Shown here: piece after piece, positions 33,137 through 44,472 of the stretch
How positions within the stretch are numbered: position 1 is the first letter of the stretch
How the letters are laid out: each line of letters starts with the position of its first letter
Assembly (NCBI GenBank): GCA_001768615.1
Contig: MELE01000214.1
Coordinates: forward strand, 2,913 to 47,384
Length of the DNA stretch: 44,472 bases
Source of the DNA: Acidobacteria bacterium RIFCSPLOWO2_12_FULL_67_14b
Lineage (GTDB): Bacteria > Acidobacteriota > Vicinamibacteria > Vicinamibacterales > UBA2999
Direction: 5' to 3'
Translations under genes and position numbers: made by a program
Notes under the pieces: model-generated
Told to the model about the DNA's origin: nothing
Databases searched by the model: none
The model's input: the letters and a program-made list of their open reading frames with translations, nothing else

Positions 33137-34273
33137 ATGACGATCAAGATCGGATCCGTCGCGCTGCAATCTCCGTTTGTCGTCTCGCCCATGGCGGGTA
33201 TGACCGACACCGCGTTTCGCCGCCTGGTGAAGCGCCAGGGTGGGTGCGGCCTCGTCGTGTCCGAGATGGTCAGCAGCGAGGGGCTGGTGCGCGGCATCGA
33301 TCGCACGCTCGAGTACGCCGAGTACACCGAAGAGGAGCGGCCCGTCTCCATCCAAATCTTCGGCGGCGAGCCGGCGCGGATGGCCGAAGCGGCGCGCGTG
33401 GTCGAGCAGATGGGCGCCAACATCGTCGACGTCAACATGGGCTGCCCGGTGCCGAAGATCGCGAAGCACAACGCGGGCTGCAGCCTCATGCGCGAGCCGG
33501 CGCACGCCGCGGAGATCATCGCGGCGATGACGAAGGCGGTGACCATCCCCGTCACGGTGAAGATGCGCAAGGGGTGGGACGACGGGGAGGTCAACGCGCC
33601 GGAGCTGGCCAGGCATGTCGAGGGCGCCGGCGCGGCGGCGATCGCGGTGCATGGGCGCACGGCGAAGCAGAGCTACAGCGGGATGGCGGACTGGGACCTG
33701 GTGTCGATGGTGGCGCAGGCGGTGTCGATTCCGGTGTTCGGATCCGGCGACTGCATCGAGCCCGAAGACATCGTCTCGCGCATGCGCGCCGGCGTGAGCG
33801 GCGTGTTCGTGGGCCGCGGCGTGCTGCGCAACCCGTGGATCCTGGCGCAGGCGCGCGACCTGATGGCGGGCCGCCCGGCCCGCGAGGTCACGCGCGAAGA
33901 GCGCGGCCGCTTCCTGCTCGACTACATGCAATTGCTGTTGAGCGAAAACGTCGATGAAGCTCAGGGTTTTCGCCATACCGCCATATCTCCGGGCTCCCTT
34001 CGACGAAGCTCAGGGCAGGCCGGGCTCCGGGCTCCGGGCTCCGACATTCCGGGCTCCGATATTCCGGGCTCCGACATTCCGGCGGTTGGCCGCGAACGCT
34101 GGGTGATCAACAAGCTGCGCGCGCTGTGCACGTGGTACACGAAGGGGTTCGAAGGGGGCTCGCACCTGCGCATCGGCGTGAACGCGGCGAAGTCGATTCC
34201 CGAACTCGAGGCCCTCATTCACGAATTTTTTGTCGCAGACACACGATGCGCCGCTACGCAACGAGGGGGCTGA
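33137..34273 (+). CDS. dusB: tRNA-dihydrouridine synthase, DusB-like
   Basis: This 378-aa FMN enzyme reduces uridine in tRNA D-loops. It starts MTIKIGSVALQSPFVVSPMA. The catalytic Cys103 is in VDVNMGCPVPK. Further markers are VKMRKGWDD, HGRTAKQSYSGMADW, FGSGDCIEPEDI and GVFVGRGVLRNPWI. Two oddities are visible. About 40 codons (near residues 277-318) are repeat-derived, including a cttcgacgaagctcaggg block and GSDIP tandem units. The last residues (CAATQRGG) and the stop come from the 97-bp palindrome. The fold core precedes both, so activity is likely kept. Confidence 0.92.
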   Translation: MTIKIGSVALQSPFVVSPMAGMTDTAFRRLVKRQGGCGLVVSEMVSSEGLVRGIDRTLEYAEYTEEERPVSIQIFGGEPARMAEAARVVEQMGANIVDVNMGCPVPKIAKHNAGCSLMREPAHAAEIIAAMTKAVTIPVTVKMRKGWDDGEVNAPELARHVEGAGAAAIAVHGRTAKQSYSGMADWDLVSMVAQAVSIPVFGSGDCIEPEDIVSRMRAGVSGVFVGRGVLRNPWILAQARDLMAGRPAREVTREERGRFLLDYMQLLLSENVDEAQGFRHTAISPGSLRRSSGQAGLRAPGSDIPGSDIPGSDIPAVGRERWVINKLRALCTWYTKGFEGGSHLRIGVNAAKSIPELEALIHEFFVADTRCAATQRGG

Positions 34274-34353
34274 TTTTGGCAAAAAGCGTTGGGATGCGCT
34301 CATGAAGCGCACCGTAAGCTTCCCGCTTTTTCCAAAATCACCCCCTCGTTGCG
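34257..34353 (+). repeat. 97-bp palindromic element, copy A
   Basis: Ends CGCAACGAGGGGG and CCCCCTCGTTGCG pair. Inner arms TGATTTTGG..AAAAAGCG pair with CGCTTTTT..CCAAAATCA, leaving two single bulged C bases on the left arm. The loop holds gatgcgctcatgaagcgcac with its own small hairpin. It overlaps the 3' end of dusB and lies 42 bp before the NeuB-like gene. Confidence 0.85.
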
Positions 34354-34395
34354 TTCACGCGGCCGGCATCGTGTCGCTCGGATAAGATCAACTGA

Positions 34396-35436
34396 ATGCT
34401 CCCTGAGCTCAGCATCGGCGGACGTCGGGTCGGGCCGGCGCACGTGCCGCTCGTGATCGCCGAGATCGGCATCAATCACGAGGGCAGTCTCGATGTCGCC
34501 CGCCAGATCGTCGACGCCGCCAAGCGTGCCGGCGTCGAGGTGGTCAAGCATCAGACCCACGTCGTGGATGACGAGATGAGCGGGGCGGCGAAGAAGGTGG
34601 TGCCGGGGAACGCCGACGTCTCGATCTACCAGATCATGGAGCGGTGCGCGCTCTCGGAGAACGACGAGCGGCGGCTCAAGGACTACGTCGAGTCGAAGGG
34701 CATGATCTTCATGAGCACGCCGTTCTCGCGCGCGGCGGCGGATCGGCTCGAGCGGATGAACGTGCCGGCGTACAAGATCGGCTCCGGCGAGTGCAACAAC
34801 TACCCGCTGCTCAAACACATCGCGTCCTTCGGCAAGCCCATCATCCTGAGCACGGGGATGAACACGATCGAGAGCGTTGGCAAGGCGGTCGCGATCTTCG
34901 AGCAGCAGGGCGTGCCGCATGCGCTGTTGCACACGACGAACCTCTATCCGACGCCCCCGCACCTGGTTCGTCTCGGTGCGATGGTGGAGCTCGGCAAGGC
35001 GTTTCCGAAGGCGGTGATTGGTTTGTCGGATCACACGACCGACAACTTGGCCTGTCTTGGGGCTGTCGCGCTCGGCGCATCGATCGTTGAGCGCCATTTC
35101 ATCGACACCATGAGCCGCGTCGGCCCCGACATCGTCTGCTCGATGGACGAAGCGCGCTGCCGCGAACTGATCCAGAGCGCGAAGATTCTTCACGCCGAGA
35201 TCGGCGGCACCAAGGGCCCCGTCAAGGAAGAGCAGGTGACCATGGACTTCGCATTTGCGACCGTGGTCACCATCACGCCGATCAAAGCCGGCGAGGCGCT
35301 GACGAAGAACAACCTGTGGGTCAAGCGCCCAGGCACCGGCTCGATTCCGGCGGAACGCTATGACGAATTGCTAGGCAAGAAAGCCCGCCGCGACCTGCCT
35401 GCCGACACGCATCTGTCGCTCGACGACGTCGAGTAG
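34396..35436 (+). CDS. Sialic/legionaminic/pseudaminic acid synthase (NeuB/SpsE family)
   Basis: This 346-aa protein has the NeuB TIM barrel: VPLVIAEIGINHEGSLDVAR, VVKHQTHVVDDEM, FMSTPFSRAAADRLERMNVP, IGSGECNNYPLL and GLSDHT. A C-terminal antifreeze-like SAF domain follows (ITPIKAGEALTKNNLWVKRP). The enzyme condenses phosphoenolpyruvate with an N-acylhexosamine to a nonulosonic acid. The exact sugar cannot be told from sequence alone. It stands alone, without neuA or neuC neighbours, and is flanked by inverted copies of the 97-bp palindrome. Confidence 0.9.
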   Translation: MLPELSIGGRRVGPAHVPLVIAEIGINHEGSLDVARQIVDAAKRAGVEVVKHQTHVVDDEMSGAAKKVVPGNADVSIYQIMERCALSENDERRLKDYVESKGMIFMSTPFSRAAADRLERMNVPAYKIGSGECNNYPLLKHIASFGKPIILSTGMNTIESVGKAVAIFEQQGVPHALLHTTNLYPTPPHLVRLGAMVELGKAFPKAVIGLSDHTTDNLACLGAVALGASIVERHFIDTMSRVGPDIVCSMDEARCRELIQSAKILHAEIGGTKGPVKEEQVTMDFAFATVVTITPIKAGEALTKNNLWVKRPGTGSIPAERYDELLGKKARRDLPADTHLSLDDVE

Positions 35437-35449
35437 TCGGTACGACGGG

Positions 35450-35665
35450 GTCAGACCCATCCGACGGCGCGGAGAGATGCCTCCCGGCGTTCGCTCTCGT
35501 CTCGCCGGTCAAATGTCGCTCGCCGTATTGAGCGCTTGGCCTATGGGCGTCTAAACGCGCAACTCGGCGCGCGTAGGCTCCGCTCCATTTGACGGTGCTC
35601 CCGGAATCGGCTCGCTCGAACGCTCACGCCGGGAGGCATCTCTCCGCGCCGGGCGGGGTCTGCGA
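35450..35665. repeat. Large unique inverted repeat downstream of the NeuB-like gene
   Basis: A 23-bp arm starting gcggagagatgcctcccggc (35467-35489) has its exact complement at 35627-35649. Outside lie ggggtcagacc and ggggtctg, and inside a second pair GTCAAATG/CATTTGAC (35508-35515/35586-35593). The 140-bp centre has no supported ORF. It could be a mobile-element remnant or a structured RNA. Confidence 0.7.
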
Positions 35666-35684
35666 GGCCTGCTGATGCAGGGCG

Positions 35685-35788
35685 AACCTAACGCCACGAG
35701 GGGGTGATTTCAGAAAAAGCGGGAAGATTACGGTGCGCTTCATGAGCGCATCCCAACGCTTTTTGCTGAAATCAGCCCCCTCGTGGCG
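35685..35788 (-). repeat. 97-bp palindromic element, copy B (inverted)
   Basis: Core 35692-35788. Read on the minus strand it aligns end to end with copies A and D. Its ends are CGCCACG/CGTGGCG where the others have CGCAACG/CGTTGCG, a paired change. The same two one-base bulges are present. ACCTAAC directly flanks the core on the plus strand. Confidence 0.85.
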
Positions 35789-35884
35789 CGTGAGCCGCAG
35801 CGTACGCCGAGCGACTACTCGAACTGCAAGGCAATCACGAACAGCGTCAGCAGCACCCCGGCGCCGGCGGCCAGAGGCTCATAC

Positions 35885-36067
35885 ATTGCCAATCGTCGAT
35901 TGACCGATTTAGTGACTGTTTGGTGATTTCGCGATTTGGCGATTTGGTGAGTCGATTTGGCGAATCATCAAATCGCCGATTCGCCGATTCGGCAATCGAG
36001 TCACAAATTGCCCAAATCGCGAAATCGCCAAACAGTCGCAAAATCAGTCAATCAACAATCGACAATG
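35885..36067. repeat. AT-richer inverted repeat upstream of the kinase gene
   Basis: The left half (ttagtgactgtttggtgatt, cgcgatttgg) and right half (ccaaatcgcgaaatcgccaa, acagtc) are imperfect reverse complements over about 55 bp each. Copies lie at 41036-41158 (half) and 43424-43640. It reaches to 15 bp before the kinase start and must contain or displace its promoter. Confidence 0.7.
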
Positions 36068-36082
36068 TAGAATTCCTCCCGA

Positions 36083-38731
<2,649 letters not shown>

Positions 38732-38737
38732 CGAGCC

Positions 38738-39142
38738 TCATGTCACGAGCGTCGCGCCGGTGAGGCTCATGTGCCGATCGGTGGACCAGCACACGCGAAT
38801 GCGCCGGCTCGACATCACGGCAAGGCCGTGGGCGTCGGCCAGCGTCAGTGCCTGATCGCTGAACTTCCTGAGCAGCACCCTGGCGCCGGTGATGGCGTCG
38901 ATGTCGAAGGCCTCGATGGTGAGGGCCGGCAGCGCCTCCACGAAATTCAGGAACTCGAGTGCGCGGCGCTGGTCGTATCGGCGCAGGAACCACCCGTGGC
39001 CTTCGGCGACGACCAACGTCGATGTGGTCAGCGGAGGCGGGTCCGAGAAGAGGCGGCGGAACAGGGGGTGATAGCTGTCGGACTTGTCGAGAAAGGCAAT
39101 GAAGGCCGCGGTGTCGATGTAGCAGTCAGTCTTTCGAGCCAT
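38738..39142 (-). CDS. PIN-domain toxin
   Basis: This 134-aa protein starts MARKTDCYIDTAAFIAFLDK, with the first PIN Asp in YIDTAAF. Further features are VVAEGHGWFLRRY and, near the end, LTLADAHGLAVMSSRRIRVC and WSTDRHM. The expected ribonuclease activity would be controlled by the RHH gene whose 3' end it overlaps by 17 bp. Its own 3' end lies 6 bp from the kinase stop, converging. Confidence 0.85.
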   Translation of the reverse strand: MARKTDCYIDTAAFIAFLDKSDSYHPLFRRLFSDPPPLTTSTLVVAEGHGWFLRRYDQRRALEFLNFVEALPALTIEAFDIDAITGARVLLRKFSDQALTLADAHGLAVMSSRRIRVCWSTDRHMSLTGATLVT

Positions 39143-39356
39143 ACACGACCTCGTCCACGGTCTGGCTCGATCGCGGGTTGCCCGATTCCACCAAGCCCGC
39201 ATAGCGCATCCACGGCGCCTTCTGTCCGCTCGGCGGGAGGCCCAGTCGGATCGCCCGGCGCACGAACTCCGCCACCGAGACCCCCAACGCCGTGGCCTCG
39301 CGCTTGACGAGCTCGTACTCCCGCTTGTCGAGGGTGATCTGGGTCCGCATCATCAT
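39126..39356 (-). CDS. Ribbon-helix-helix antitoxin
   Basis: This 76-aa protein (MMMRTQITLDKREYELVKRE) has a typical RHH opening with TQITL as the DNA-contacting strand. GVSVAEFVRRAIRLGL forms the helices, and an acidic or polar toxin-binding tail follows. ATG 39356 follows a GGTAGG eight bases upstream on the minus strand. The track's longer ORF extends into transposase remnants and is not the gene. It forms a unit with the overlapping PIN gene. Confidence 0.85.
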   Translation of the reverse strand: MMMRTQITLDKREYELVKREATALGVSVAEFVRRAIRLGLPPSGQKAPWMRYAGLVESGNPRSSQTVDEVVYGSKD

Positions 39357-39439
39357 GTTATCACCTACCATCTTCATGATAACACACGGGTCCTGCTCGC
39401 CGCTCTCTGAGTCTGGCCACCGTTCGTTCGCGCTTCGGC

Positions 39440-39490
39440 GTGCACCCGAGCACCCGAGCACCCAAGCACCCAAGCACCCAAGCACCGGAT
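39440..39490 (+). repeat. 'gcacccaa' tandem repeat
   Basis: Six tandem copies of an 8-base unit, gcacccga then gcacccaa. It separates the antitoxin promoter from the transposase remnant. Confidence 0.75.
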
Positions 39491-39499
39491 AGCCGATCG

Positions 39500-40165
39500 G
39501 CCGCCCTAGCTTACGGCGAGCGGCTGCGATCGTGGCGAACTCCCTGGCGGCGAGCCCATCGAAGGATACGGTCGATGCGGCCAGGCTTCCGAGGGCAACT
39601 TCGGCGCGTTGGGCCAGACTCGACTTGCGCTTCCCGTCGGCGCGCAAGGCGATAATCGCGTCGGCTCCGGCGACGGTCCAGTGCATGCCGGCGCGCTTGA
39701 GCCGCGTGCCGATCGCCGTCTTGCAGCCGGCCTCGACCACGCCGGTTGAGGTGCACAGACCCTGGGCGCGGAACTCGGGGTAGCGCATGCGGTGGTGGTT
39801 CTCCGTGACGTAGCCCAGACACTTCGACCTCCGCCTTGCGCACCGGCACCCCGGTGCCATCCATCCCCAGGTACAACGTCGGCGCTAGCGGCTCGCTGGG
39901 CACCGGCGGTTCGATGACGCGCTGTTCGTCCGCGGCGACCTCGCGCCCCAGGGCTTCCGCCGCCCGCTCCACGTGCGTGGTCGGCACCTCGACGCCTGCC
40001 AGCTCGCGCAACAGCTCGTGACCCTCCTCGAAGCTAACCATCGCCCCCCCGCCCCACCATGCGCAAGACGCCCGGCGAGAGCGACGCACCCTCAACCCCC
40101 AGTGCGCGGTCGCGCGGGCAGAAGCCCGCCTCACAGGGCGCGCAGCTTGACCGGCTCTGCGCCAC
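39500..40165 (-). mobile_element. Decayed ISKra4-family transposase
   Basis: On the minus strand, three pieces of one transposase appear in different frames. A Cys-rich block reads GFCPRDRALGVEGASLSPGV (about 40130-40050). It shifts frame at a G-run into VSFEEGHELLRELAGVEVPT and TLYLGMDGTGVP. An internal deletion near 39830 then joins to CLGYVTENHHRMRYPEF and RLKRAGMHWTVAGADAIIAL. These blocks match the ISKra4 family from memory. With a frameshift and a large deletion it cannot be active. No terminal inverted repeats were identified, so the ends are approximate. Confidence 0.75.
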
Positions 40166-40182
40166 CGGCGTAATGTAGTCAC

Positions 40183-40485
40183 ATGAAGGACCACACAGCC
40201 GCGCGGCGGGGATCGGCGCGGAAGGTTGTCGGCGTCCGGGAACTGAAGACGCATGCCGCCGGCATCCTGCGCCACGTAAGAGAGGCGCGTGCGTCGTACA
40301 TCCTGACGCACCGGGGCCGGGCCGTCGGCATGATCCTTCCCCTCGAGCCGGCCGAAGATGCCTCGACGACTTCTGAAGACGCCGCGGCCGCGTGGGACGC
40401 GTTCGTGCGCGCGGGGCGGCGCCTCGAACGTCAATTCCGTCCGGGCGTCAGCGGCGTCGACCTCCTCTCCGCCATGCGCCGATAG
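40183..40485 (+). CDS. Phd/YefM-type antitoxin
   Basis: This 100-aa protein has KVVGVRELKTHAAGILRHVR, the Phd/YefM start in which a basic N-terminal fold binds DNA. It continues SYILTHRGRAVGMILPLEP. The C-terminal half is the toxin-wrapping tail. The next gene, 1 bp downstream, is a PIN toxin. The start at ATG 40183 lies directly after the IS remnant. Confidence 0.85.
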   Translation: MKDHTAARRGSARKVVGVRELKTHAAGILRHVREARASYILTHRGRAVGMILPLEPAEDASTTSEDAAAAWDAFVRAGRRLERQFRPGVSGVDLLSAMRR

Positions 40486-40486
40486 G

Positions 40487-41014
40487 ATGGCAATCGGTCG
40501 ACGGAATCCACGTGGGCCGGTTCGAACCCGTCGTTCCGGGAATCTCCGGTACACCGTTGACGCGAGCGTCTTCATCAACGCGTTCAATCCACACGAACCG
40601 GGTCACGCGGCGAGCCTGGCGATTCTGGCCGCGATTCAGGAAGGCGGCGACCCGGTCATCGTGCCGACATTGTTGCTCCCTGAGATGGCATCGGCCGTGG
40701 CTCGAGCGAGCCACGACGGTGCCGGGGCCCTCGAGTATGCGACCGCGACGGCGGCCCTTCCGCACCTCTCGCTCGTCGCGTTGACGTCGACGACGGCCCG
40801 GCAGGCGGCCGAGTTGGCGGCCACGCACCGGCTGCGTGGCGCTGACGCCGTCTACGTCATGGTCGCGCGAAGGTACGGAACGACGCTCGTGTCGCGAGAC
40901 GATGAGCAGCGTTCGCGCGGGTCCGTGGTCGTGGTCTGTCAGACCCCCGAAGAAGCCCTGAGCCATCGGCAGACGATCGAGCGGACCCGGCGATCACGCG
41001 TCAAGAAACCGTGA
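40487..41014 (+). CDS. PIN-domain toxin (partner of Phd-type antitoxin)
   Basis: This 175-aa protein is read from ATG 40487. After a basic N-terminal extension it has RYTVDASVFINAFNPHEPGH with the first PIN Asp. Further on are LLLPEMASAVARA and the acidic HRLRGADAVYVMVARRYGTT and LVSRDDEQ. The roughly 20-residue extension before RYTVDAS suggests a later start (for example a non-ATG codon) is possible. The toxin-antitoxin arrangement is standard. Confidence 0.85.
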   Translation: MAIGRRNPRGPVRTRRSGNLRYTVDASVFINAFNPHEPGHAASLAILAAIQEGGDPVIVPTLLLPEMASAVARASHDGAGALEYATATAALPHLSLVALTSTTARQAAELAATHRLRGADAVYVMVARRYGTTLVSRDDEQRSRGSVVVVCQTPEEALSHRQTIERTRRSRVKKP

Positions 41015-41035
41015 CCCTCGCCCGTCACGGCCGCC

Positions 41036-41158
41036 AATCTTCAATCTTCAATCTTCAATCGACAATCCCGCAATCTCAAAATCGAATCACCCAATCACCA
41101 AATCACGAAATCACCAAACAGTCGCCCAATCGATCAATCAGCAATCGGCAATGCGTCG
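41036..41158. repeat. AT-richer repeat, half copy
   Basis: Tandem aatcttcaatcttcaatc is followed by atcacgaaatcaccaaacag. This matches the right half of the inverted repeats at 35885-36067 and 43424-43640. It fills the gap between two convergent toxin genes. Confidence 0.7.
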
Positions 41159-41160
41159 TT

Positions 41161-41568
41161 CTACGCCAAACGCAGCCAGTTCTCGAGCGCCAGCTTGTCG
41201 ACCCGGGCAAACTCACGCTCGTTGTCGGTTACCACCGTGCAGCCCAGGCTCACCGCCTGAGCGGCGATGAGCAAATCGTTGCCACCGATCGGTTGACCAG
41301 CGTGTTCAAGTTGGGCGCGGAGCGTACCGTAATTGGAGTCGGCGGGCGCTTCGAAGGGCAGGACATCAAGCACACCGAGTACCGCTTCGAGTTGGGCAGA
41401 CAGTCGCGCCGATCCCTTCTTCGCGGCGCCGTAGCGGAGTTCCGCGGCGACGATGATGCTGGTGCAGACGTGTGCCTCACCGACGGCGCGGATCTCCTGC
41501 GCCACGCGGCCCTGCGGATGACGGACGAGATCCGACACGATGTTGGTGTCGAGCAGGTACCGCATCAA
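41161..41568 (-). CDS. vapC: VapC-type PIN toxin
   Basis: This 135-aa protein is a textbook VapC: MMRYLLDTNIVSDLVRHPQG with the catalytic Asp, CTSIIVAAELRYGAAKKG with the Glu, and IGGNDLLIAAQAVSLGCTVV ending in TDNEREFARV with the remaining acidic residues. It overlaps the vapB stop by 4 bp, so translation is coupled. The family cleaves initiator tRNA or rRNA. Confidence 0.93.
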   Translation of the reverse strand: MMRYLLDTNIVSDLVRHPQGRVAQEIRAVGEAHVCTSIIVAAELRYGAAKKGSARLSAQLEAVLGVLDVLPFEAPADSNYGTLRAQLEHAGQPIGGNDLLIAAQAVSLGCTVVTDNEREFARVDKLALENWLRLA

Positions 41569-41810
41569 AAATCAACGGGGTCGACCGGCAGCTCTGCGAT
41601 TGACGGGAAATCCTCATCGAGCGGCGCGAGAGTGGCCAGCCGCGCCAGAAGGGACGTCGGCGGGGCCGGTTCGATGATCAGCCGTTCACCGTCCTTGCGC
41701 ATGATGGCGTCCTCTCCCGGAAGCTCGAATTCGCGTGGGATCCGGACGGCCTGGTTTCGACCGTTCTTGAAAAGCTTGACGTGCCGCCCGCGGAGCAAAG
41801 ACTCTGACAT
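41565..41810 (-). CDS. vapB: VapB-type antitoxin (AbrB/MazE fold)
   Basis: This 81-aa protein is read from MSESLLRGRHVKLFKNGRNQ. The swapped-hairpin DNA-binding motif is VKLFKNGRNQAVRIPREFEL. The C-terminus (FPSIAELPVDPVDF) would fill the toxin active site. Two ATGs are possible (41810, or 41822 adding MLWH). A 24-bp palindrome overlaps both, which fits autorepression. Confidence 0.9.
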   Translation of the reverse strand: MSESLLRGRHVKLFKNGRNQAVRIPREFELPGEDAIMRKDGERLIIEPAPPTSLLARLATLAPLDEDFPSIAELPVDPVDF

Positions 41811-41828
41811 ATGCCACAGCATATGTCA
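41805..41828. promoter_or_regulatory. vapBC operator palindrome
   Basis: TGACATATG-CCACAG-CATATGTCA has perfect 9-bp arms over the vapB start codon(s). This position and symmetry are typical of VapB-VapC autoregulatory operators. Confidence 0.65.
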
Positions 41829-41854
41829 TGCCGTCCAGGCAGTCAAGCAGGGGG

Positions 41855-41905
41855 CGGGCTGATTTTGGCAAAAAGCGTTGGGATGCGCTCAATGAACCGT
41901 ACGGG
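41855..41905 (+). repeat. Truncated copy of the 97-bp palindrome (C)
   Basis: gggctgattttggcaaaaag and cgttgggatgcgctc match the left half of copy A. The sequence then breaks down at aatgaaccgtacgggg, so the right arm is lost. The rest of the gap to 41990 shows no gene. Confidence 0.75.
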
Positions 41906-41993
41906 GAGACGCGCGGCGCATGTCAGTCCTTACGCGCCCTGAGCAGTGCGTCCAGCAGAAGGGTTCGTGCTGCGCAAGTAAGTCCAGTGTTCG

Positions 41994-42033
41994 AGTATAT
42001 ACTGCCGTCACTTTGCACAGTAAAATGACGGCA
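41994..42033 (+). promoter_or_regulatory. Palindromes upstream of the DUF4143 ATPase gene
   Basis: AGTATATACT (41994-42003) is followed by TGCCGTCA/TGACGGCA arms (42003-42010 and 42026-42033), ending 2 bp before the ATG. This looks like a promoter with an overlapping operator. Confidence 0.45.
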
Positions 42034-42035
42034 TC

Positions 42036-43196
42036 ATGGCACAGAGCCGTTATCCGCGGCTATTCCGGGCCCCGAAAGGGAGCTTCTTCCTCCTTGGCGT
42101 GCGGGGGACCGGCAAGAGCACCTGGACACGGAACGCGTTTCCCGGCGCACATATCGTCGATCTTCTGGATGAATCGCGCGCTCAGCAACTGCTCGCCAAT
42201 CCTGGCCTCCTGGCCCTGGAGCTCCGGGCATTGCCGCGCGAAACGGTCGTGGTTCTCGACGAAATCCAGCGCGTGCCCGGGTTGCTCAACGAGGTCCATC
42301 GCGCCATCGAAGCCAGCGCGCGCCGGTTCGTGCTCCTGGGCTCCAGTGCCCGTCGCCTCAAGACCGCGAATACCAACCTCCTCGCGGGGCGGGCCACCCT
42401 CCAGACGATGTACCCGCTCGTGCCCGCCGAACTCGGGAAAGACTTCGCTCTCGACCGCGTCCTGCGTTTTGGGAGCATCCCGCTCATCTGGCAGGCCGCG
42501 GATCCCCGCGCCACGCTCGACGCCTACGTGCAGCTCTACGTCCGTGAGGAAATCCGCGTCGAGGCCTTGGTGCGGAACCTCCCCGGGTTCCTCCGGTTTC
42601 TGCCCGTCGCGGCGCTCTTCCACGGACAAGTCATCAACGTCGCCGGTCTGGCACGCGACGCGGCAACGGCGAGGACGACGGTGGAAGGGTATCTCGGCAT
42701 TCTGCAAGACACGCTGCTGGCGACACTGCTGCCGGCCTTCGAGTCGCGGCTGCGCGTGCGCGAGCGCCGCCATCCGAAGCTCTATTGGGTCGACCCGGGA
42801 GTGGTGCGAGCCGCCAAGCGGCAGCTTGGCCCGGTTTCGTCCGAGGAGCGCGGGCCGCTCGTCGAAGGGTGGATCCTCACGACTCTCCGCGCTCATAACG
42901 GCGACGCCGGCGTGTTCGAGGACATTTGGTACTGGGCACCGGCCCAGGCCCGCCAGACGGAAGTCGATTTCCTGCTGCGCCGCGGGCGGGAATATCTGGC
43001 GCTCGAGGTCAAGGCGCAGGCACGGTTTTCAACCTCGCAGCTCGATGGATTGCGCGCGATCGGCGAACTTCCAGCTCTCACCAGACGCGTCCTCGTGTAC
43101 CTCGGTGACCGGCAACTGAAAACCGAGGACGGGATCGAGATCTGGCCGCTCGAGACATTTCTCGAGCGGCTGGCTGGTCGGACGCTGTGGCCGTGA
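42036..43196 (+). CDS. AAA ATPase with DUF4143 domain
   Basis: This 386-aa protein has a P-loop near the start (FFLLGVRGTGKSTWTRNAF), Walker B-like TVVVLDEIQRVPGLLNEVHR, and a sensor segment FVLLGSSARRLK. The C-terminal half matches DUF4143, with the nuclease-like end TEVDFLLRRGREYLALEVKA, which resembles a PD-(D/E)xK core (E..D..ExK). Members are common beside toxin-antitoxin genes; their function is unsettled. It is complete, with its own palindromic upstream region. Confidence 0.88.
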   Translation: MAQSRYPRLFRAPKGSFFLLGVRGTGKSTWTRNAFPGAHIVDLLDESRAQQLLANPGLLALELRALPRETVVVLDEIQRVPGLLNEVHRAIEASARRFVLLGSSARRLKTANTNLLAGRATLQTMYPLVPAELGKDFALDRVLRFGSIPLIWQAADPRATLDAYVQLYVREEIRVEALVRNLPGFLRFLPVAALFHGQVINVAGLARDAATARTTVEGYLGILQDTLLATLLPAFESRLRVRERRHPKLYWVDPGVVRAAKRQLGPVSSEERGPLVEGWILTTLRAHNGDAGVFEDIWYWAPAQARQTEVDFLLRRGREYLALEVKAQARFSTSQLDGLRAIGELPALTRRVLVYLGDRQLKTEDGIEIWPLETFLERLAGRTLWP

Positions 43197-43299
43197 GGCC
43201 AGGCGGCGTTACGTGCAACGTGCTCGAGGATCCTTATTTGACCGATCGCAGTGCAGTGGCGAGCGCCACCAGACCAGGCGGCGGTGAACTACTGGTTCC

Positions 43300-43408
43300 G
43301 CGCCAATGCCGCGGCGGCGCCGCCGGCATCAAGCCGACGATGCAGCCGAGGAACGAGAAGTACCGGCTGCACAAGGTCGGCGACAAATGGCGGTTGCTGC
43401 CACCGTGA
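43300..43408 (+). pseudogene. Partial, internally deleted copy of the kinase 3' end
   Basis: atgcagccgaggaacgagaa and the following bases to the stop match the kinase gene's last 84 bp (38648-38731) with about 7 differences, mostly silent. Just before lies gccgcggcggcgccgccgg, which matches 38268-38286. So about 360 bp are missing between two collinear blocks. It encodes only YRLHKVGDKWRLLPP-type tail residues and has no kinase domain. The track ORF at 43187 through it is not convincing as a gene. Confidence 0.7.
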
Positions 43409-43423
43409 AGCGTGGGCAACACA

Positions 43424-43640
43424 TTGACGATTGAGCGATCGGCGATTTAGTGACTGTTTGGTGATTGCCAATTGTCGATTGGGCGACTCGATTGCAGATT
43501 CCCGATCGCACGATTGGCTGCCCCGTCACCGCCGCCAATCTTCAATCGACAATCGACAATCCCGCAATCGAATCACCCAATCCCAAATCACGAAATCACC
43601 AAACAGTCGGCAATCGTTCAGTCGCCGATTGGCAATGCTG
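43424..43640. repeat. AT-richer inverted repeat, third copy
   Basis: ttagtgactgtttggtgatt on the left and atcacgaaatcaccaaacag on the right are inverted, with caatcgacaatcgacaatcc between. It belongs to the same family as 35885-36067. Confidence 0.7.
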
Positions 43641-43714
43641 TGACCCCAGCCCTGTGAGCACGGGTCCGGCGACAGAGAGCGGCGTGGTGGTCTGGACGGG
43701 GTTAGAATGGAGGC

Positions 43715-43921
43715 GTGTCCACGCCTGATCGCCCGATGACGTTGCGGATCGCGCCGCAGTCCGATTCGGAGCGGCTGAATCGCGAATACTGGGAGGGCAT
43801 CCCGCCCCACGAGCGGCTCGCGCAGGTTTGGGATCTCGTGCGTGAATACACCGCGTGGAGGACGCCCGATGCCGGTGAATCCCGACTTCAGCGATCTGTT
43901 CTCCGCGTTGAACGACGCTGA
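43715..43921 (+). CDS. Small protein upstream of the nucleotidyltransferase
   Basis: This 68-aa ORF starts at GTG 43715. It has REYWEGIPPHERLAQVWDLV and ends RLQRSVLRVERR. Similar small proteins of this pattern precede nucleotidyltransferase-like genes in many genomes, as far as I recall. It overlaps the next gene by 53 bp, so the pair is probably translated together. No function is assigned; an antitoxin or chaperone role is a guess. Confidence 0.65.
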   Translation: MSTPDRPMTLRIAPQSDSERLNREYWEGIPPHERLAQVWDLVREYTAWRTPDAGESRLQRSVLRVERR

Positions 43922-44321
43922 CACCCGCTACCTGATGGTTGGGGGCTACGCGGTTTCCTTTCACGCCGAACCCCGTTTTACCAAAGACCTCGACGTCTGG
44001 GTGGAGCCAACGCCGGCAAATGCGGTGGCCGCTCACCGAGCGCTGTCCGCGTTCGGCGCGCCGATGGCGGATGTGCGGCCGGCGGACCTGTCGAAGCCAG
44101 GACTGATCGTTCAGCTCGGTGTCCCCCCGAACCGCATCGATATTGTGACATCGATCGACGGCGTCTCGTTCGAGCAGGCATGGGCCGGCAGAGTGGACTC
44201 CGTTTACGGCGACGTGCCCGTCCATGTCATTGGGCGGCGAGAGCTGGTATTGAACAAGAGAGCGTGCGGACGTCCGCAGGACCTGGTAGACGCCGACCAG
44301 TTGGAGAAGTCAGCGCCCTGA
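43869..44321 (+). CDS. Nucleotidyltransferase-fold protein (DUF6036/AbiEii-like)
   Basis: This 150-aa protein starts at ATG 43869 (MPVNPDFSDLFSALNDADTR). YLMVGGYAVSFHAEPRFTKD followed by LDVWV matches the GG...A....RxTxDxD core of minimal nucleotidyltransferases. The third acidic residue is in RIDIVTSIDG. KRACGRPQDLVDADQLEK near the end is the usual tail (GRPKDL.D...L). Such proteins often serve as toxins that add nucleotides to tRNA or proteins; the small upstream gene may be its partner. The track start at 43842 adds nine unlikely residues. Confidence 0.82.
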   Translation: MPVNPDFSDLFSALNDADTRYLMVGGYAVSFHAEPRFTKDLDVWVEPTPANAVAAHRALSAFGAPMADVRPADLSKPGLIVQLGVPPNRIDIVTSIDGVSFEQAWAGRVDSVYGDVPVHVIGRRELVLNKRACGRPQDLVDADQLEKSAP

Positions 44322-44344
44322 GCGCCACCAGGCAGCGGCTCACA

Positions 44345-44449
44345 CGCAACGAGGGGGGTGATTTCAGAGCAAAGCGTTGATGCGCTCATGAAGCGCACCG
44401 TAAGCTTCCCGCTTTCTCTGAAATCACCCCCTCGTTGCGTTAAGTTCGC
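44345..44449 (+). repeat. 97-bp palindromic element, copy D
   Basis: Core 44345-44439 (95 bp). Its inner arms TGATTTCAGAG..AAAGCG and CGCTTT..CTCTGAAATCA differ from copy A at paired positions yet still match each other. The loop gatgcgctcatgaagcgcac is identical. GTTAAGT follows the core, matching GTTAGGT at the same place in copy B. The 23 bases to the window end show nothing further. Confidence 0.85.
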
Positions 44450-44472
44450 CCGCAGTCGGTCGCGCTTCGGCG

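What the first reader, a model, noticed from the sequence alone, without database searches (positions are those of the whole stretch)
34257..44439. A 95-97 bp palindromic element family with co-varying arms, fixed loop and two conserved bulges
Full copies lie at 34257-34353, 35692-35788 (inverted) and 44345-44439, with a truncated copy at 41855-41905. Copies differ at both partners of a base pair: CGCAACG/CGTTGCG against CGCCACG/CGTGGCG, and TTTTGG/CCAAAA against TTTCAG/CTGAAA against TTTCAGAG/CTCTGAAA. So the fold, not the sequence, is kept. The loop gatgcgctcatgaagcgcac and a one-base bulge at each of two positions on the same arm are constant. Bulges on one arm plus GTTAGGT or GTTAAGT (GTTRRRY) beside two copies recall integron attC sites, but the other boundary lacks RYYYAAC and no integrase is seen. 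It may be a MITE, a REP-like element or an attC relative recognised as single-stranded DNA.
Basis: partly seen in the sequence, partly recalled or inferred. Interest (0 to 1): 0.85.

Follow-up and report, generated by a model that had tools for sequence, protein, structure and literature searches.

The report
Repeated DNA hairpin at gene ends
A roughly 115-base palindromic DNA repeat has spread to a dozen or more places in each of two related Acidobacteriota species, nearly always just after the end of a gene and in one orientation; it is a new local family of a known kind (ERIC/REP-like repeats), not an integron recombination site.

Summary
The palindromic repeat is real and dispersed. The assembly holds 12 full or nearly full copies and 4 half or fragmentary ones; a congener (G006) holds 17 near-complete copies and two fragments of a diverged subfamily (~80% identical). 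No other of 193 genomes in the class has a match. The element is longer than described: its base is GGCTCAC...NNN-GTTCGCC, about 115 bp. Arm changes are paired (9 of 30 pairs, 52 cells) but almost never pass through G-U. That fits a DNA palindrome whose arms are copied onto each other as well as selection on a fold. It is not attC: GTT/AAC is not conserved, GTTRRRY fits only 3 of 10 copies, and a rule that finds true attCs beside integrases of three congeners finds none here. Copies sit mostly 10-60 nt after stop codons of ordinary genes (dusB, panE, mnmE, arginase) in one orientation (14:1), often followed by a second ~190-bp palindrome. Orthologous panE and mnmE ends in relatives lack it, so it has moved. 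No transposase is flanked by it. Best reading: a new ERIC/REP-class extragenic palindrome (MITE) whose copies persist as 3'-end hairpins.

The parts
34245..34370 (+). Palindromic element copy 1 (main stem 34257-34353) with its own outer arms GATGC-GCCGC / GCGGC-CG-GCATC; the dusB stop codon lies inside its left arm
   Evidence: sequence; fold; alignment; Dus domain
35681..35796 (-). Palindromic element copy 2, ends GGCTCAC / GTTCGCC, main stem 35692-35788, arm change CGCCACG/CGTGGCG
41856..41891 (+). Left-arm fragment, broken inside the apical loop after GATGCGCTCA
   Evidence: (D10, I7)
44337..44450 (+). Palindromic element copy 3, ends GGCTCAC / GTTCGCC, main stem 44345-44439, 15 nt after the stop of the ORF at 43842-44321
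35465..35651 (.). Second palindromic element (P2, about 187 bp), 29 nt from the right end of copy 2; about 23 matches in G000 and 49 in G006
   Evidence: (I11)
33137..34273 (+). dusB-like gene (Dus, PF01207) whose 3' end runs into copy 1
34396..35436 (+). neuB-like gene (PF03102 + SAF) between copies 1 and 2
43842..44321 (+). ORF of 159 aa upstream of copy 3; no Pfam family; a homologue lies beside a copy in G006 C93

Best explanation
A lineage-specific family of mobile, non-coding extragenic palindromes (class of ERIC, REP/REPIN, YPAL, NEMIS): about 115 bp that fold into one hairpin with a ~30-bp stem and a partly fixed ~35-nt apical loop. Shown: it is dispersed at non-orthologous sites in two species of one genus, it is absent at orthologous sites of relatives, and it lies in one orientation just downstream of stop codons. 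Inferred: (1) it spreads as a non-autonomous element whose enzyme reads the fixed loop or base on one strand; that enzyme is not identified. (2) Its arms stay complementary because replication template-switching copies one arm onto the other, helped by selection on the hairpin. (3) Copies are tolerated or kept only behind genes, where the transcribed hairpin blocks 3' exonucleases or read-through.
For: 12 full or near-full copies and fragments in G000, 17 near-complete copies plus fragments in G006, none in 7 other congeners nor elsewhere among 193 class genomes. Empty orthologous 3' ends at panE (8 relatives, G006 included) and mnmE (8 relatives, G000 included). The dusB-neuB junction carries unrelated repeats or a VapBC-like pair in the other relatives where it could be read. 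Same-strand stop within 75 nt of the 5' side only in 14 copies, opposite-strand stop on the 3' side only in 1, p = 0.001; upstream genes are ordinary. Two-sided changes are all Watson-Crick to Watson-Crick; G-U appears only in 3 cells that are an alignment artefact of the sliding bulge. All four partial copies inspected break inside the apical loop, as expected if the hairpin extrudes and is cleaved.
Against: No transposase is flanked by the element: the four Y1 transposase loci checked in the two host genomes carry other terminal repeats. No target duplication could be read, because 3' flanks are hypervariable. RNA function and termination are untested, and no U-tract follows the stem. The family is small and known from MAGs.
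Confidence: 0.7

Rival explanations
1. Integron attC site or attC-derived lone site, folded from the bottom strand and recombined by IntI.
For: Bulged hairpin; element downstream of genes in a fixed orientation like cassettes; a real IntI in the assembly and in four congeners.
Against: GTT/AAC becomes GTC/GAC in G006 and GTG/CAC in L037; GTTRRRY falls on a variable NNN. The attC rule finds 60-95 bp GCC(T/C)AAC...GTT(A/G)GGC sites beside IntI in G005, G001 and G007 but none in any copy. Upstream genes are dusB, panE, mnmE and arginase family. Copies are single, not arrayed.
Confidence: 0.03
2. A 3'-UTR RNA element (terminator or mRNA stabiliser) kept by selection on the RNA fold, with orientation set by function.
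For: Strict placement and orientation after stop codons; RNA fold -62 to -75 kcal/mol; the fixed loop implies a sequence-read part; few T-tract terminator-like sites near genes (20 against 13.3 by chance).
Against: No U-tract; no G-U intermediates; one-sided changes are A.C on the sense strand (G.T on the antisense strand), the opposite of what a sense RNA should tolerate (few events); absent at the same genes in all relatives.
Confidence: 0.2
3. A TIR-repeat family mobilised by a Y1 (IS200/IS605-type) transposase, as in TIRtrons of Acidobacteria (PMC3733652), the source transposon being lost or unassembled.
For: Y1 transposases in all nine congeners, and most of those inspected are flanked by long TIRs, several with a GGGGTC motif; TIR repeat families are known in Acidobacteria (PMC3733652).
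Against: No Y1 locus inspected carries this hairpin or a full P2; congeners with Y1 genes lack the hairpin.
Confidence: 0.15

Closest known systems
ERIC/YPAL-class intergenic repeats (127-168 bp single long stem-loop; PMC2267715)
   Same: Size, single long hairpin, intergenic, dispersed, no coding capacity, probably non-autonomous mobile element
   Different: No sequence relation tested; marked orientation bias behind stop codons; strongly fixed apical loop; restricted to two species of one genus
REP/REPIN and GTAG- or CGTC-tagged repeats with RAYT (PMC3733652)
   Same: Palindromic, extragenic, mostly downstream of coding regions
   Different: About 115 bp rather than 20-40 bp, no GTAG or CGTC tag, no associated RAYT found
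TIR repeats of TIRYT transposases in Acidobacteria (PMC3733652)
   Same: Host phylum; moderately abundant, partly self-complementary repeats
   Different: Not found at either end of any Y1 gene inspected
Integron attC sites
   Same: Bulged hairpin downstream of genes
   Different: No R''/R' boxes, no conserved GTT, not beside IntI, single copies behind housekeeping genes

Membership tests
Integron attC | R''/R' boxes RYYYAAC...GTTRRRY with conserved AAC/GTT at the base of the fold | tested here: not met
   Zero hits in all copies on either strand, positive controls found beside IntI of G005/G001/G007; triplet varies
Integron attC | Array of cassettes next to an integron integrase | tested here: not met
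   Copies dispersed singly over many contigs behind housekeeping genes; none on the IntI contig C97
ERIC/MITE-class extragenic palindrome | Short non-coding palindrome, multiple dispersed intergenic copies | tested here: met
ERIC/MITE-class extragenic palindrome | Mobility: empty orthologous sites | tested here: met
   panE and mnmE 3' ends without the element in relatives
ERIC/MITE-class extragenic palindrome | Target-site duplication and terminal repeats shared with an autonomous element | tested here: inconclusive
   3' flanks too variable to define a duplication; no related full-length transposon in the assembly
REP (GTAG/CGTC) with RAYT | 20-40 bp unit tagged GTAG or CGTC and RAYT gene flanked by it | tested here: not met
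   No tag, 115 bp, Y1 loci carry other repeats
Rfam RNA family | Score over the curated gathering threshold | tested here: not met
   Only chance miRNA-hairpin hits far below gathering scores
Intrinsic terminator | GC hairpin followed by a T-tract | tested here: not met
   No T-tract after the stem in any copy

The most novel reading that the evidence does not exclude
A DNA element that copies itself through a single-stranded hairpin read at its fixed loop by an unknown enzyme and inserts directionally behind stop codons, its arms being re-templated on each other, so that strong 'RNA-like' covariation arises without selection on any RNA.
Probability: 0.15. Interest if true: 0.65.

Novelty: new member of a known kind. 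Interest (0 to 1): 0.36.

Why it matters
It adds a new family of directional extragenic palindromes in a phylum where few are described. It is also a compact natural case in which covariation tests would call an RNA structure although the pattern (double transversions, no G-U, breakpoints in the loop) points to DNA-level hairpin processing. The genus seems to keep a species-specific set of palindromes behind the same housekeeping genes, which would make turnover of 3'-end repeats directly testable.

Tried and rejected
Rfam scan: chance hits only. Plasmids: none. Covariance-model search of the order and class: no third species, with the caveat that the first look scores only about 20-25 candidates per genome. 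attC hypothesis: rejected. Y1/RAYT flanking: not found. Gene-cassette hypothesis: rejected, since upstream genes are housekeeping. Apical sub-hairpin TGCGC/GCGCA is supported only in G000; an alternative GCTCATG/CGTAAGC pairing is compatible with both subfamilies (94.9% of cells) but shows no two-sided change.

Full report
Observation. Each folds as a single long hairpin well beyond shuffled controls. Searching the assembly with copy 3 gives 12 full or nearly full copies plus halves and fragments. Alignment shows that the repeat is longer than 95-97 bp: eleven G000 copies share GTTCGCC (or a one-base variant) on the right and ten of them GGCTCAC on the left, the eleventh having lost its left half. 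Between the main stem and GTTCGCC lie three variable bases, and it is these that give GTTAAGT or GTTAGGT in two window copies. The copy at 34257 lacks those ends but carries its own paired outer arms.

Relatives. Among 43 genomes of the family only the window's own and one congener, G006, have the element; G006 has a diverged subfamily (~80% identical) with an 8-bp basal stem GCAGCCGG/CCGGCTGC. A covariance model built from both subfamilies finds no third species among 162 genomes of the order or 193 of the class. What is best kept between subfamilies is the A5-GCG / CGC-T5 stem and the loop segments GTTGGG, GCTCATGAAGCGC and CGTAA.

Covariation. With 30 stem pairs, 9 have changes on both sides; 52 cells change on both sides against 20.1 in column shuffles, and the slid structures give at most 4. 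[quoted passage not shown] The only G-U cells come from a shifted bulge, and true one-sided transitions are A.C on the gene-sense strand. Template switching during replication is known to produce exactly such stem repair (PMC8794818), so the covariation shows a palindrome that is maintained, not necessarily an RNA that is selected. All four partial copies inspected break within the loop (window 41891, G006 C93:821, and L013 and L014 on C249), which suggests cleavage of an extruded hairpin (inference).

Placement. With the loop defining orientation, the element follows the stop codon of a same-strand gene in most copies. By a conservative codon-score rule 14 copies have a gene tail only on the 5' side, one only on the 3' side (its left flank is masked) and one on both; p = 0.001. 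The rule misses further cases such as copy 3 and the dusB copy. The upstream genes tested are ordinary: Dus, PanE/ApbA, MnmE, HMGL-like, arginase family.

Empty sites. Gene order is conserved across the genus. Behind panE only G000 has the element, and behind mnmE only G006. Behind dusB the other relatives that could be read carry GTAG-type short palindromes, CCGGGATCCCGG repeats, a P2-like palindrome or a VapBC-like gene pair. So the element arrived by insertion, in a zone where each species has its own repeats. One G006 copy (C93:3300-3397) and window copy 2 follow the same small ORF ending GVLLTLF.IALQ, either a shared old site or a repeated hit on a hotspot.

Second palindrome. About 24-45 nt downstream of the hairpin many copies are followed by a second inverted-repeat element, P2 (~187 bp; window 35465-35651). 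P2 is more abundant (23 matches in G000, 49 in G006, traces in G002, G007 and G008), occurs alone, and faces either way.

attC test. The assembly does contain a real integron integrase, as do four congeners over the cut-off. Beside the integrases of G005, G001 and G007 canonical attCs of 60-95 bp (GCC(T/C)AAC...GTT(A/G)GGC) are found by a simple rule; the same rule finds none in the hairpins. The resemblance to attC is therefore convergent.

Mobiliser. Y1 transposases are in all nine congeners. Most of those inspected are flanked by long inverted repeats, several carrying GGGGTC, like the TIRtrons described in Acidobacteria (PMC3733652), but none by this hairpin or a full P2. The responsible enzyme is unknown.

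Verdict. A new lineage-specific family of ERIC/REP-class extragenic palindromes with unusual directional placement behind genes. RNA-level function is plausible but unproven; integron identity is rejected.

Noticed in passing
window 35465-35651; G000 about 23 and G006 about 49 matches: A second dispersed palindrome (P2) with GTCAAAT...ATTTGAC inner repeats, sometimes in back-to-back pairs (e.g. G000 C27:120586-120948), often 24-45 nt downstream of the hairpin.
   Followed up: partly
G000 C97:375-1319 (L126): Genuine integron integrase (TIGR02249, 450 bits) near a contig end with no attC array seen next to it; five of nine genus members have one over the cut-off.
   Followed up: partly
L101, L097, L105, L112, L098, L106: Y1 transposase genes flanked by long terminal inverted repeats, several with a GGGGTC motif, matching the TIRtron layout of PMC3733652.
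   Followed up: partly
window 961, 3278, 6429, 32160 and 30781, 33104: Short GTAG-tagged hairpins (GTAGAGGCGGGTCTTTAGACCCGCC and similar) and GTGGGGACAAACCT..AGGTTTGTCC hairpins near gene ends, like canonical REPs.
   Followed up: no
panE, mnmE and dusB 3' ends in G001-G008 (L173-L195): The same 3' intergenic gaps hold different, apparently species-specific inverted repeats in most genomes of the genus; some enclose an inserted gene.
   Followed up: partly
window 35882-36069, 41057-41153, 43430-43640: Repeated AATCG/GATT-rich inverted repeats (CCAAATCACGAAATCACCAAACAGTCG) between genes.
   Followed up: no
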